In this document: positions 3,021-52,514 of the stretch, piece after piece
Layout: each line of letters starts with the position of its first letter
Numbering within the stretch: the first letter of the stretch is position 1
Assembly: GCA_002786025.1 (NCBI GenBank)
Contig: NHNW01000010.1
Span: 496,001 to 560,000 of the forward strand
Origin: Zasmidium citrigriseum
Lineage: Eukaryota; Ascomycota; Dothideomycetes; Mycosphaerellales; Mycosphaerellaceae
Direction: 5' to 3'
DNA: 64,000 nt
Translations under genes and position numbers: made by a program
Notes under the pieces: model-generated
The model's database searches: none
The model's input: the letters and a program-made list of their open reading frames with translations, nothing else
Told to the model about the DNA's origin: nothing

Positions 3021-5892
3021 ATGAAGAGCTTTACGACTATTGCTACGGCGGCGGCCTTCGCTGGCCTGGCCTCGGCCAAGACATGTCACAACATGACAGT
3101 CCCTGTCTCCATTTCTGCCAGAAACGGCAAATACGACCAGCAGAAGTTGACTCCAGTGACAAACATTGATGTCACCAACTACGTCCTGCTGCAGTCTCGA
3201 CAGGGTACCAACTACTCCATGGAGGCCCTACAAGGGGTGGGTTATTGCAAGATGTCGGTATTGGGCGCAGCTGATTTGCTCCCGAAAGTACCAAACAGTA
3301 TCCGGCACATACCATATGGCTGCGACCTACTGCGCTCCCGACAGTGGATCCCCAAGTGTTGTCCAAGGTCAGTCATCTCCAAAGGAAAAAGTCACAAAGG
3401 ATATCTGCAAAGAGACGGATGGCATTGCTCCTTTCTCAATAAGGAGTCAAGCATCCAAGCCTCCTCGTAGGAGGAAGAAGAGATATCTGCGGACGGATGG
3501 CACATTGTGACCGAGCTTCATATGCTGACATTTGGAAAGTCCTCACGCACGGTATCGGCTTCGACAGGAGCTATTGGGACAGCCCATTCAACAACTACAA
3601 CTACTCCTATGTCAACAGAGCTACCGAGGCCGGCTACGCGACCTTCGCCTTCGACAGACTAGGGATCGGAATGAGCTCTCACGGCGAGCCAGTCAACGAG
3701 ATTCAAGTTCTCCTGGAAGTCGCTGCGCTGAAGGCTTTAACCGACAAGGTCCGAGCTGGTTCTATCCAAGGCATGCCCAAATTCAGCAAGGTGTTGCACG
3801 TTGGACACAGTTTCGGCTCTGCCCAGACTTATGCCTTGACTGCGATGTACCCCGATGTCTCTGATGGTATCGCTTTGACGGGATTCTCGCAGAATGGAAC
3901 GTTCCTTCCATACTTCCTCCTCGGCGGCAACTTCGTTCAGGCCAACAAGAACCCAGCGCTGGCAAGCTACGTGAATGGATACTTGGCGCCGGCTGATGCC
4001 AGCGCTGTTCAGACGAACTTCTTTGCCCCTGGTGACGTGAGTATACAACAAGCAACTCCATGGTGGTGCCATGACTGACAGAGCTCTAGTTCGACCCGAA
4101 CGTCCTCCAATACGCCACCATGACCGGCCAGCCAGTGACCATCGGTGAGCTCCTCACCATCGGAGGCTCCACCGGATCGAAGAACATGATTAAGGCCCCC
4201 GTCCTGATCGTCACCGGTCAATATGACGTCCCATACTGTGGTGGAAACTGCCTTGCCGCACCTACTGGCTACTCCAGCATCCCAGAGACCTCGAAGATGT
4301 ACTTGCCCAACGCCAGCCCATTCAAGGTCGATATCATCATGGGCGCTGGCCACGGTCTGAACTACCAGTACACTCACCCAACGACCTACACCGACATCCT
4401 CAACTTCTTTGCTCAGAATGGCCTTGCCGCGAGCGGCTCCGGCAAGGGTGCTATGCCACCTGCTGGTAAGCCACCAGGAGGTATGGGCGGCAACTGGGGA
4501 ACGAGCGCTGGAGGTGTCAACCAAATCAAGGATGGTGAGTCTTTAGCGGATGCGTTGAGAAGCATTGCTGATGATAAGAAGGACAAGTCCAAGCCGCTAC
4601 TGCCACTGGTAGTGCTGTCTCTGAGATGGCTGACGGTATTGCTTCCAGCATCCGCTCCAATAAAGACGAATACTGACAAACTCTAGGCCAGCCTAACGCA
4701 CCAACGGGAGTCGTGAGCGAGATCAACGATGGTATGTCTTGATTACACAGCTTGCAGAAAGACAGTAGCTGACGGTATGGAGGTCAACCGCAAGCCCCAA
4801 CTGGCGTGGTCTCTGAGATTGGTGATGGTATGGGTTTGCAAGGCCTTCTGGTCAAGATTGATGCTGATAACGTTCAGGCCAGCCACAAGCTCCTACTGGC
4901 GTCGTTTCGGAAATCTCTGACGGTATGTACTGTACTGAACGCATCGTTCTGGAATGCTTCTAACAGTCCTCCAGGACAGCCGCAAGCTCCTACGGGTGTT
5001 GTGAGCGAGATCAGTGATGGTATGTCTACAATGGATGGCTCATACGTGGGCAAAAACTCAGGAGCGATCAGGTCAACCGCAAGCCCCAACTGGCGTGGTC
5101 TCTGAGATCGCGGACGGTATGACATACCTTTGATTCATTTTGAAGCCCGTAGCTGACTCCTGGTTCTAGGCCAGCCCCAAGCCCCAACAGGTCATCCGAT
5201 CATGCAAATTAGTGATGGTACGTCTTATAGTTGAGCCTTGAAGAAAATGCCCGCTGACTTGAAATTTAAGGCCAGATTCAAAACCAACCTATGCAGACTG
5301 GCAGCCCCGTCCAGCAGATCAGTGCGTCTATCTCCATCAGAATATTCTCTTTCGTGCCACTAACAAGCATCAAAAGATGACGGCCAGCCGCAAGTAGCTA
5401 CGGGAAAGCCGGTCCAGCAGATCACCGATGGCAAGTCTCAAGATTGAGAACGGTGATTCTCGATCGCTAACTCGAGGATTAGGTCAAGTGCAACAACCTA
5501 CGGGACAGCCGATCCAGCAGATCACCGATGGTAGGTCCTGCGATCCACGATGGAGTCCTTCAATCATTGACTTGAATTCAACAGGCCAAATCCAGGCCCA
5601 GCCCATGTCGACTGGCAGCCCAGTTCAGCAAATGAGTATGTACACTGCCGCTCGAAGTCCTGAACGCTCCTGACCTCTTTATCACAGGTGATGGGCAGCC
5701 AATCCAGCAAATTTCCGATGGCCAAATTCAACGCCCTACTGGCTCGCCAGTGCAGCAAATCAGTTCGTCTCCCTCTGTCTTTCGCCCGGAAAGTTCGCTA
5801 ACGTAGGACTAGATGATGGGCAGCCACAGGTCAAGAGCTCCCCAGTTCAGGAGGCGAACGATGGCCAACCACAGGCGACCACGGCCGCATAG
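3021..5892 (+). CDS. Secreted alpha/beta hydrolase with C-terminal PIR-like repeat tail
   Basis: The spliced product is about 640 residues from 17 exons. Residues 1-19 form a signal peptide (MKSFTTIATAAAFAGLASA). The catalytic part is encoded by 3021-3236, 3289-3367, 3540-4036 and 4090-4534. It shows the nucleophile elbow GHSFGS (Ser about 188), an acid in TGQYDVPY (about 309) and the His in GAGHGLNYQ (about 351). A Gly/Pro linker (PPAGKPPGGMGG) leads into a tail from about residue 412 with 15 DGQ motifs, for example GQPQAPTGVVSEISD, ending QPQATTAA. This resembles the yeast PIR motif, in which a Gln in the repeat is linked to beta-1,3-glucan. The protein is therefore probably a wall-tethered or wall-associated esterase; the substrate is unknown. 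Tail exons are 4582-4635, 4687-4731, 4783-4827, 4878-4922, 4975-5019, 5072-5116, 5170-5217, 5271-5321, 5377-5430, 5483-5530, 5585-5635, 5688-5762 and 5813-5892. The total sums to 1923 coding bases with no frame conflict. Confidence 0.82.
4535..5892 (+). repeat. Tandem exon-intron repeat array encoding PIR-like units
   Basis: A roughly 96-base unit recurs: a conserved exon of 45-54 bases plus a divergent intron of 47-55 bases. There are 13 introns, all phase 1. Ten split the Gly codon of DGQ and three (5322, 5636, 5763) sit exactly two codons upstream. Exon 5688-5762 holds two DGQ motifs without an intron between them. The intron at 5431-5482 begins GCAAGT, so it is GC-AG. Exon sequences are close to each other while introns share little beyond splice signals, which implies old duplication with constraint on the protein. 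Confidence 0.85.
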
Positions 5893-6430
5893 TCCTAGCT
5901 CGCAAACGACGAGAGGATGCAAATCCCTATGGAGGAAGGGGATATGAATTGATGACAACCTACTCATGACCAAATTGTACATACCCTCACGACAGATAGT
6001 GCGATACAGAGCACAGAATTGGATAATATAATCCCGACTCGTCTCGATCTTACATTTCCTTGCCTCAATCAGTAATCTCGTAACATCAAACGATGAGAAG
6101 GCTTCTAGTTCGGTCTTGCAGGTCCTTGTCCGACACTCTTCTATCGAGATCGCCTCTAATATTGCGGATTGACCACGTTGTCGTAGATGGCCCAAATGGT
6201 AAGACAATCAAGACTGTGCTCTGTAGACATTGGAACTCTAGGAGATACTGATATGAAAGACTGTAGCGGAAATGGTGGTACCAACGCAATGTGCTTGACA
6301 TTGTAAGCACTATCTACACGTTCGGCAGGTGGTCCTCAATCACCGGAGGTCTGCTTGCCCCCATGCAAACACGAAAAGAGTGGCTCGAAGAAGAGCTCAT
6401 AAGGCAACTTCTGGTAACAGTAGACTGCGT
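5893..6430. other. Convergent 3' flanks
   Basis: This lies between the 3' ends of the PIR-tailed hydrolase and the minus-strand secreted protein. Small ORFs here show no family features. I see no further signal. Confidence 0.5.
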
Positions 6431-7166
6431 CTACCAACGCTTCAAAGCCATGGCCTTCTTCCACCAAGCAAGGCGATCATCGTTGATCGCGGTACCCACA
6501 CACTTAGTCACATACGTGGTGTATGCAGCCTCCGTTCCAGATGCGAGACTCTGCGCGATCGCAGGACACTGAGAGCGCAGGAACCACGCCGCCGAGCCGA
6601 AGCTCACATGGTCGCTGGAGTTGAGGAGATCGACGACAGCGTCCTTGGTCTTGTTTTCGCCGAGAGCGTAGGCTTCGTCGAGTTTTGCTTGCGTGATGCC
6701 GCAGGTGTTGTGTTTGGCGAGATAGGTGGCGTACTGGCTGTTGTATGTCCAGGATTGCATCTAAAGCAGCAAGAACATGGTGTTAGCGGCTGTGAAGGGA
6801 AAGTGGACAGAGGGGGTTTGAAGAGATACTTACATTGCGAGTGCCCTGGCCAGGGTTTGGACTCGGGAAGTGGTGCTTGTTGTACTTGAATTGACCACTC
6901 TCGAGGAGGATGAGCGATACCAATGCCGCCTGCGCGCCAAAGCTGTCGATGTGGTAGTCCTTGAACGAGCGGGCGATATTGGTAGCGGCGACCTCGGCAG
7001 TTGCACATTCCTTGGGATAAGCAGCGTCGGCATTGTCACAGGAAGCGCTGCCAGGGGCAATCTTGATTAGGTCTTGAGCAGTGAGGGTGCCAGCGTTGCG
7101 GGTGGTGGGAGCAGCGGAAATGGCGACCGTCAGGCCGAAGATGGCGAGGAGCGCAGATGCCAGCAT
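6431..7166 (-). CDS. Small secreted protein, possibly lysozyme-like fold
   Basis: Two exons, 7166-6834 and 6760-6431, are joined over an intron at 6833-6761 (GTAAGT...TTTAG) and give about 220 residues. An N-terminal signal peptide (MLASALLAIFGLTVAISAAP) is clear. The mature part has the stretch LILLESGQFKYNKHHFP followed by PGQGTRN, and four Cys after the signal peptide plus one near NTCGIT. The ESGQF-KYNKHHFP region recalls a family of ascomycete secreted proteins for which a lysozyme-like fold has been proposed; I am not certain of that assignment. The Glu in ESGQ would be the candidate catalytic residue. The gene is tail-to-tail with the PIR-tailed hydrolase. Confidence 0.75.
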
Positions 7167-50519: not shown

Positions 50520-51983
50520 TCACAAGAATCCAGCCAATGCCTCCATGAACGCTTCATGGTTCTCCAAGAACGGCAAATGACCAGCCTTTGGTATCGATTT
50601 GAAAGTCGTATTTGGAATCCCAAACTTCTGCATCGCCTCAGGTAGTTTGCCGTCACCCTCGCCGGCGATCAAGAGTCCTGGAGCCTTGATGTTTGCTACC
50701 TTTGGTTTCAGGTCGTAGTTGCTCAATGCTGATGTGTTCTGCTCGAAGCCATCGAAGTTGGCCTGCTCGGCCATGGGAAGGACCTTCTTGGCGTTGGGTG
50801 AGTCATGGTTGTCTGGCGTGAACCAGCGAGATACTGTTGCCTTGGCCAGTTCGGCCATTCCTTTGGACTTTGCAAGCTCTACACGTTCTGCCCATGCTTG
50901 ACTGTTGGCTGGGCTTGAGGCTACGTTGCAATCGCAGGCAACGAACTTCTCGAGCATGTCAGGGTGCTTGATGGCAAAGTTGATGGCAGTGACGCCGCCC
51001 ATGCTGACGCCCATCACAGCGTAGACCTTCTCCAGGTTGAGTCGCTGGAGCAGATACTCCAAATCATCAGCGAGAAGATCGAAGTTGGTATGGTTGCTCT
51101 TCTCGGCTTGCTGCGAGTATCCTCGAGAGTTGTACCTCAAGACTCTGAACGTCTTGCCATTGATGCCTTTGATCAGATCCTTGGCCACCTCGTCCCAGAT
51201 GTGCAAGTTGGTCATGATCGAGTTCACACATACGACGACAGGATCCGCTGGGTTGCCTTCCAGTTGATAACGCAGCTCAGCGCCATCGGTCGTCGTCACA
51301 GTTGAAGGCGGCTCCACGTACTTGTCAAAAGAAAGGTGGTAACCCCACGTCCTCGATTCCTTCCAAATGACTTTGCTCATCAACTGGTTTCTCCTGGGCG
51401 TGTCCATAGCTGCCTGGTGCTCTGGGCCGTTCAACCCATTTTTCGCCTGGAAGTCGTGAACCGCAAGAATCTCGACCTGACCTGCAGGCGGCATGCCCTG
51501 AATGCCTCCGACCTGCATTCGAAAGCGCCTAGTACGGAGCCAGCCCGGGATTTTCGAAAGCATATCGGTATGCTCCTCTTCGTACCACTTGTTAAATTCG
51601 GCCAAATCAGACTCATTGATCCTCATAGACACCGCGCGGGTCACGAGAGGCGCTCCGTTAAATTCGCCTCGAACAGAGATCAGACTGTAGATTTTGCGAT
51701 CCAGTGACTCAAACGTTCCCATAATAGCCTTCTCTCGCAGTGACCGCTCCTCCCGAAGGCGGGTGTAGATTCTTTTGTCCAGCCAGGAAAGATCGGAGAC
51801 ATCATAAACTGCTGACCATTGAGGTTTCTGGCCATCTACTGCTTTGTAGCGGTCTCCAGACTCGATGAATGGTAGCCGAAGTCGCAGGGGTCCATGCTCG
51901 GTATTGTACCAGTCGTGGAAGATGGCCTCGTCGGTATTCCAGCCCGGTTGGATCGCAACGGCAAGATATCCAGGGCCATTCAT
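50520..51983 (-). CDS. EthD-like repeat/alpha-beta hydrolase fusion
   Basis: The gene is a single exon of 487 codons. Residues 1-110 and 110-215 each look like an EthD/dimeric alpha-beta barrel unit (FHDWYNTEHGPLRL and FNKWYEEEHTDMLSKIPGW). From about 225 an alpha/beta hydrolase follows, similar to 3-oxoadipate enol-lactonase: VCVNSIMTNLHIWDE, the elbow GVSMGG (Ser near 326), and the His in AGHLPFLENHEAF near 467. Such hydrolases open lactones in the beta-ketoadipate pathway; the EthD-like part may bind a ring compound. The combination is what is unusual. It has no signal peptide. Confidence 0.8.
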   Translation of the reverse strand: MNGPGYLAVAIQPGWNTDEAIFHDWYNTEHGPLRLRLPFIESGDRYKAVDGQKPQWSAVYDVSDLSWLDKRIYTRLREERSLREKAIMGTFESLDRKIYSLISVRGEFNGAPLVTRAVSMRINESDLAEFNKWYEEEHTDMLSKIPGWLRTRRFRMQVGGIQGMPPAGQVEILAVHDFQAKNGLNGPEHQAAMDTPRRNQLMSKVIWKESRTWGYHLSFDKYVEPPSTVTTTDGAELRYQLEGNPADPVVVCVNSIMTNLHIWDEVAKDLIKGINGKTFRVLRYNSRGYSQQAEKSNHTNFDLLADDLEYLLQRLNLEKVYAVMGVSMGGVTAINFAIKHPDMLEKFVACDCNVASSPANSQAWAERVELAKSKGMAELAKATVSRWFTPDNHDSPNAKKVLPMAEQANFDGFEQNTSALSNYDLKPKVANIKAPGLLIAGEGDGKLPEAMQKFGIPNTTFKSIPKAGHLPFLENHEAFMEALAGFL

Positions 51984-52514
51984 TGTGAATTTTCCGCTTT
52001 AGAAGACGTTTCGAAGATGGATGCTTAATAACTCTGCATGTGCATTGAAAAGTGCAGTGTAGTCCAGACTTGGCCCGGGTGCAAGCAGAGAGGAGTCGGA
52101 AGCTTCGATCGGCATCTGGTAGAGGGGGAACAATATTTAAGCCCTCCTGATCAGGGGGGAGGATCCATTTGCCCTCGCAGGGCCATCCTTTTTGAGGCGA
52201 CTTTGCAAGATCCAGGCATGGCGGATTGATACGCCTTCGTCTTGGATGGATTGTTGATGACAAGAGTGCTGAGGAAGGCGCTTCATGTTCCTGCGAAGTG
52301 AGGCGTCACAGCATGTTTCGAGATTGGCGCAACTGCCGATCCTCGAGCTCCCTCTCACCTTCCCATCCCACCTATGCTAGGTAGGTACGCAACGACGTCG
52401 AGTCTCACAACGTTCAAGAAGAATTGCACATAGCACTTCCACAGCCAACTCTCCAACAACCACTGCAGCTTGAGTCAACAGCACAGCGCCCAAAAATCCA
52501 ACCGAGACAACACA
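51984..52514. promoter_or_regulatory. Divergent intergenic region
   Basis: This holds promoters of the fusion hydrolase (minus) and the small 75-residue protein (plus). No other feature is supported. Confidence 0.4.

What the first reader, a model, noticed from the sequence alone, without database searches (positions are those of the whole stretch)
3021..5892. Secreted hydrolase fused to a PIR-like cell-wall repeat tail
An intact Ser-Asp-His alpha/beta hydrolase with a signal peptide runs into 15 DGQ repeats (GQPQAPTGVVSEISD and variants, then GSPVQQITD forms, ending QPQATTAA). Yeast PIR proteins carry such repeats to bond to beta-1,3-glucan, but I know no hydrolase of this type with them. 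It suggests an enzyme displayed on the wall through a Gln-rich tether.
Basis: partly seen in the sequence, partly recalled or inferred. Interest (0 to 1): 0.9.

Follow-up and report, generated by a model that had tools for sequence, protein, structure and literature searches.

The report
Fungal esterase with wall-anchor repeat tail
A secreted-looking fungal enzyme carries a tail of 15 Pir-type repeats, the kind that yeasts use to bond proteins to cell-wall glucan, written almost one repeat per tiny exon, so the enzyme is probably fixed in the fungus's own wall; similar tails occur on several unrelated fungal enzymes.

Summary

It is not a classical Pir protein: no Kex2-type site, no four-cysteine domain. 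Seven of 15 repeats have Glu where yeast Pir needs Gln. No transcript or wall evidence exists here. Verdict: new variant of a known kind.

The parts
3021..3236 (+). Exon 1: signal-like start MKSFTTIATAAAFAGLASA and N-terminal part of the hydrolase
   Evidence: signal peptide by inspection only
3289..3367 (+). Exon 2 (hydrolase)
   Evidence: the junction GYQTVSGTY agrees with P0001
3540..4036 (+). Exon 3: hydrolase core with nucleophile motif GHSFG (Ser189)
4090..4534 (+). Exon 4: catalytic Asp310 and His352, Gly/Pro linker (about 4427-4522) and the start of the first Pir repeat (QIKD); ends in phase 1
4582..5217 (+). Tail block 1, exons 5-11 (4582-4635, 4687-4731, 4783-4827, 4878-4922, 4975-5019, 5072-5116, 5170-5217): six of its seven exons end in SE[IM]xD, with Glu at the first Gln position; the units are nearer to those of the genome's other PIR gene than to the Z. 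cellare tail
5271..5892 (+). Tail block 2, exons 12-17 (5271-5321, 5377-5430, 5483-5530, 5585-5635, 5688-5762, 5813-5892): QQI-type units; full Q[IV]xDGQ[IVP]Q motif in 6 of 8 DGQ, counting the one across the exon 11/12 junction; nearer to the Z. cellare tail; stop codon 5890-5892
4535..5812 (+). Span holding introns 4-16, thirteen introns of 47-55 nt, all in phase 1, one with a GC donor (5431); introns 5-16 are the 12 tail introns

Best explanation
A secreted alpha/beta hydrolase, probably an esterase of the StnA fold, is held in the fungus's own cell wall by a C-terminal array of Pir repeats. After secretion, a Gln in repeats of the form Q[IV]xDGQ[IVP]Q becomes ester-linked to beta-1,3-glucan, as reported for yeast Pir4/Cis3. 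Block 2 would do most of the bonding; block 1, where Glu replaces the first Gln, may act mainly as spacer. The tail was gained once in the lineage of Z. cellare and the window species. Exons 5-16 are all multiples of three and phase 1-1, so gain, loss or skipping of an exon changes tail length in frame. Shown here: gene anatomy, PIR identity, selection on the repeats, shared fusion, StnA-like fold of the Z. cellare protein. Inferred: secretion, splicing in vivo, wall linkage, block roles, esterase substrate.
For: PIR 171.7 bits with 11 stretches, Abhydrolase_6 39.9 bits. Seven repeats carry the full motif. The same fusion is in Z. cellare P0001, 762 aa, 76% identity over 100% of the query, 22 DGQ, and it is sister to the window with support 100/100. 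Repeat exons 6-10: pS 0.80, pN 0.11. CTRAY branch motif in 10 of 12 tail introns; shuffle mean 1.7, 0 of 2000 reach 10. The tail has no Cys and, by eye, no GPI-like end, so the repeats are the only visible anchor. The genome's other PIR gene also has intron-split repeats, 8 of 9 modelled introns in phase 1. Pir arrays occur with other enzyme domains. Literature: one repeat plus signal peptide displays beta-lactamase, covalently and non-covalently bound (PMC10483737, passages); two repeats are needed and suffice in C. albicans Pir1 (PMC12359137, passages).
Against: No RNA or wall-proteome data. Of 120 listed relatives only P0001 carries the array and P0002 a stump of it. Seven of 15 repeats have Glu at the first Gln and one repeat (DGQPIQQ) is irregular; in C. 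albicans Pir1, changing the first Gln of the first repeat abolished incorporation (PMC12359137, passages). The four-cysteine Pir domain and a Kex2-type site are missing. The tail fold is undecided: pLDDT about 55-68 over residues 431-660 and lower beyond in P0001, disordered in the poor P0123 model.
Confidence: 0.77

Rival explanations
1. The tail is translated but acts as a flexible or beta-helical spacer, or binds glucan without a covalent bond; the enzyme is released or only loosely held.
For: Seven of 15 repeats lack the first Gln. Several relatives have other low-complexity tails (Ser/Ala-rich, Gly/His-rich) at the same place, so some C-terminal extension may be enough. In PMC10483737 (passages) a construct bound only non-covalently kept significant activity.
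Against: Seven repeats keep the complete bonding motif, and selection holds the repeat sequence, which a plain spacer would hardly need.
Confidence: 0.17
2. The repeat exons are a decayed remnant or are not joined to the hydrolase; the real product ends after the hydrolase, near 4540-4690.
For: 116 of 120 listed relatives hold no DGQ. If intron 4 is not removed, the frame stays open to 4686.
Against: Exon 4 itself ends in the first part of a repeat (QIKD) in the right phase; all tail junctions keep phase 1; branch motifs are present; pS far exceeds pN; and Z. cellare is annotated with the joined protein.
Confidence: 0.06

Closest known systems
Z. cellare PRZ48_001467 (P0001), a record called hypothetical protein
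   Same: Same hydrolase (86% over 378 columns), same linker, same kind of tail.
   Different: 22 DGQ instead of 15, all preceded by Gln at the first position; no function given in the record.
GH3 beta-glucosidases with terminal Pir repeats in Chaetothyriales (PMC5872309, section 15 read; examples P0139 and P0253)
   Same: Hydrolase followed by a C-terminal Pir array with DGQPQAPTG-type units.
   Different: Unrelated catalytic fold; other fungi; the exon layout of those genes was not seen.
Yeast Pir cell-wall proteins (PF00399 repeats)
   Same: Repeats match PF00399 and, in seven cases, the consensus Q[IV]xDGQ[IVP]Q quoted in PMC12359137.
   Different: No Kex2-type dibasic site and no PIR1-like_C domain (PF22799); the array sits at the C-terminus of a hydrolase.
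StnA, streptonigrin methylesterase (PDB 5hdf, 5hdp; PMC5225493, abstract and passages)
   Different: 26% identity in that alignment; bacterial biosynthetic enzyme; the solved chains show no Pir match here; substrate of the fungal enzyme unknown.

Membership tests
Pir cell-wall protein family | Pir repeats Q[IV]xDGQ[IVP]Q | tested here: met
   171.7 bits to PF00399; full motif in 7 of 15 repeats
Pir cell-wall protein family | Kex2 (KR) processing site | tested here: not met
   no KR or RR in the 640 aa protein
Pir cell-wall protein family | four-cysteine domain (PF22799 PIR1-like_C) | tested here: not met
   absent at E up to 0.1; found as control in P0123 and in the genome's other PIR gene
Pir cell-wall protein family | mild-alkali-sensitive link to beta-1,3-glucan | not testable with these tools
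   needs wall extraction
Pir cell-wall protein family | N-terminal signal peptide | tested here: inconclusive
   seen by eye; no predictor was run
alpha/beta hydrolase (Abhydrolase_6) | domain score over curated cut-off | tested here: met
   39.9 bits against 26.3
alpha/beta hydrolase (Abhydrolase_6) | Ser-Asp-His triad | tested here: met
   S189, D310, H352 line up with StnA S185, D308, H349 (StnA triad from PMC5225493 passages)
StnA-like methylesterase | same overall fold | tested here: met
StnA-like methylesterase | methyl ester hydrolysis | not testable with these tools
   needs assay
Pir-tethered enzymes (architecture as in GH3-Pir) | catalytic domain plus Pir array without the PIR1-like_C domain | tested here: met
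   window protein; GH3 example P0139; precomputed domains

The most novel reading that the evidence does not exclude
Filamentous ascomycetes use the Pir array as a portable, covalent wall tether that was joined several times to unrelated secreted enzymes (alpha/beta hydrolase, GH3, carboxylesterase, sedolisin, GH35, lactonase-like) and to ferritin-like proteins, at either end or inside. In this lineage nearly every repeat is its own phase 1-1 micro-exon, so repeats can be shuffled, duplicated or skipped in frame, and tether length could be set by splicing.
Probability: 0.45. Interest if true: 0.75.

Novelty: new variant of a known kind. Interest (0 to 1): 0.6.

Why it matters
Pir repeats are usually treated as structural wall cross-linkers. 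If fungi use them as a general way to keep secreted enzymes in their own wall, many enzymes predicted as 'secreted' are really surface-bound, which bears on nutrition, wall remodelling and secretome predictions. Such genes are easily missed: the six-frame PF00399 search of this genome did not list the window gene, probably because exon borders cut the motif, and one Z. cellare model (P0002) stops inside the tail. Natural fusions are also ready-made designs for enzyme display.

Tried and rejected
But codon identity to that gene is no higher than for random synonymous recoding in any of 14 units (lowest p 0.092). So no recent gene conversion is claimed.

Tail introns as copies of one element: trimmed introns are only slightly more alike than shuffled ones (mean score -2.7 against -5.0, sd 3.4). 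Not pursued.

Fold of the tail: the P0001 model shows short strands at pLDDT about 55-68 over residues 431-660; the P0123 model is poor, mean 50, its repeats modelled without strands. PMC10483737 (section 15) proposes a two-faced beta-helix from AlphaFold. Left open.

Other Pir fusions in this genome: the pattern and family searches showed arrays only in the window gene and at C138. The other nine hydrolase matches in the genome (13 matches, 4 of them in the window gene) have no Pir hit beside them in those searches. The ferritin-like gene at C46 has a Gly/His spacer. The searches are capped and blind to split motifs other than the one tried, so others could be missed.

MFS rows with PIR (P0240, P0279, P0313) were set aside as probable merged gene models; I did not test that.

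Literature: no title or abstract start listed describes an alpha/beta hydrolase with Pir repeats. The library holds only open-licence papers, and I opened seven: PMC8975586 (outline, passages), PMC5872309 (passages, section 15), PMC12359137, PMC12560822, PMC5225493 and PMC10700024 (passages), PMC10483737 (outline, passages, section 15).

Full report
What is there. The window lies on contig C2 of a 44.4 Mb genome, G000, which is fungal by its genes and relatives. The gene at 3021-5892 reads as 17 exons giving 640 aa. Exons 1-4 encode a signal-like start, an alpha/beta hydrolase and a Gly/Pro linker. Exons 5-17 encode the tail. All 13 tail exons are entered in phase 1; 11 of them are 45-54 nt, the last two 75 and 80 nt. 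Introns 4-16 are 47-55 nt, one with a GC donor. The tail holds 15 DGQ motifs; the last 240 residues hold 48 Gln and no Cys.

Is the tail real? Four lines say so. First, the joined protein scores 171.7 bits against PIR (cut-off 20.9) and 39.9 bits against Abhydrolase_6. Second, five repeat exons (6-10) differ at 0.80 of synonymous sites but 0.11 of non-synonymous sites, summed over ten pairs, so selection has kept the protein repeat. The pairs are not independent and the exons are short, so this is a direction and not a rate. Third, a branch-point motif CTRAY lies 10-14 nt before the 3' splice site in 10 of 12 tail introns; shuffled introns average 1.7 and none of 2000 shuffled sets reached 10; reverse complements give 1; random window slices average 0.9. 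I had placed the introns by frame and splice signals, not by branch point. Fourth, a pattern for a splice-joined D-G-Q, fitted to this tail, hits 11 times on the + strand, 10 of them here, and 0 times on the - strand. There is no transcript evidence.

Relatives. A protein search returned 601 relatives at E <= 0.001, 120 of them listed, from a capped candidate set. Of these 120, four hold any DGQ: P0001 (Z. cellare, 22), P0002 (Z. cellare ATCC 36951, 1; a model that ends in what looks like unspliced intron), and P0034 and P0037 (Hortaea, one each in a Gln/Gly-rich stretch, not Pir). I printed the ends of the first 60 (one had no match to the end motif): nearly all stop soon after the hydrolase or run into other low-complexity tails. 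In a 32-row tree the window is sister to the two Z. cellare proteins (100/100), 86% identical to P0001 over 378 columns, inside a supported group of ten whose other seven rows (Lecanosticta, Zymoseptoria, Ramularia, Dothistroma, Pseudocercospora, Septoria, Cercospora) hold no DGQ. The linker before the tail is shared with P0001. One gain in this lineage is the simplest reading. Gene models can miss such tails, so absence elsewhere is not proven.

How the tail would work. In S. cerevisiae the repeat Q[IV]xDGQ[IVP]Q forms an ester link to beta-1,3-glucan, shown only for Cis3/Pir4 (PMC12359137, passages, citing Ecker 2006, which I did not see). In a two-repeat C. albicans Pir1, changing the first Gln or the Asp of the first repeat, or the last Gln of the second, abolished incorporation (same passages). 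In yeast a signal peptide plus a single Pir repeat displayed beta-lactamase, bound both covalently and non-covalently (PMC10483737, passages). Here 7 of 15 repeats have the full motif; 7 have Glu at the first Gln, six of these in block 1; one repeat is irregular. In 120 other Pir proteins (119 plus P0001) the first position was Gln 1109 times and Glu 44 times, and 92 of the 120 have no Glu there. Block 1 is therefore unusual and may be a spacer; that is inference.

Wider pattern. The genome has one other PIR gene that I found, at C138. There the PIR1-like_C domain comes first, 16 DGQ follow, 8 of the 9 introns that I modelled are in phase 1, and the end looks GPI-like by eye. A search with the Z. 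cellare tail returned 103 proteins, from a capped candidate set. From the precomputed domains printed there I count: 33 Pir with PIR1-like_C, 31 with GH3 domains, 14 with Ferritin_2, 12 with PIR only, 3 with MFS domains (set aside), one each of alpha/beta hydrolase (P0001 itself), type-B carboxylesterase (P0277), sedolisin (P0298), GH35 (P0302), HsbA (P0315) and lactonase-like (P0321), and 4 without PIR. In the sequences that I read, arrays are C-terminal in GH3, sedolisin and lactonase-like proteins, N-terminal in ferritin-like and carboxylesterase proteins, and internal in GH35. Rows are 90% clusters, many of them metagenomic, and their gene models were not checked, so these are not counts of fusion events. 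[quoted passage not shown] PMC12560822 (passages) reports many PIR-repeat proteins in rock-inhabiting fungi (32 and 21 copies in two species) without naming fusions in the passages I saw.

Verdict. The protein is not a member of the classical Pir family (no Kex2-type site, no PF22799), but its tail probably works like one. It is a new variant of a known kind: a Pir-tethered enzyme with a catalytic fold that none of the listings describes, and with an almost one-repeat-per-exon layout.

Noticed in passing
L007, about 4765-6901 (G000 C138): Second PIR gene: PIR1-like_C domain N-terminal, 16 DGQ in intron-split repeats (8 of 9 modelled introns in phase 1), GPI-like hydrophobic end by eye; domain order reversed relative to yeast Pir.
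   Followed up: partly
L022:1372-2529 (G000 C46): Ferritin-like protein with a Gly/His-rich spacer where its relative P0129 of Septoria linicola has a Pir array.
   Followed up: partly
window 50520-51998 (-): Second alpha/beta hydrolase (Abhydrolase_1, 72.9 bits) whose N-terminal half is weakly like EthD (21.7 bits, just under the cut-off of 22); a possible fusion.
   Followed up: no
window 5431-5482: Intron 13 has a GC donor (GCAAGT) in place of GT.
   Followed up: no
window 4822/4828, 5014/5020 and 5212/5218: Pairs of possible donors six bases apart after exons 7, 9 and 11 (GTGATG|GT); use of the first would drop two residues in frame.
   Followed up: no
P0001 tail: The Pir array also scores with Pfam Bflower_2 (75.9 bits) and DUF3659 (67.4 bits), hinting at a beta-repeat fold.
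   Followed up: partly
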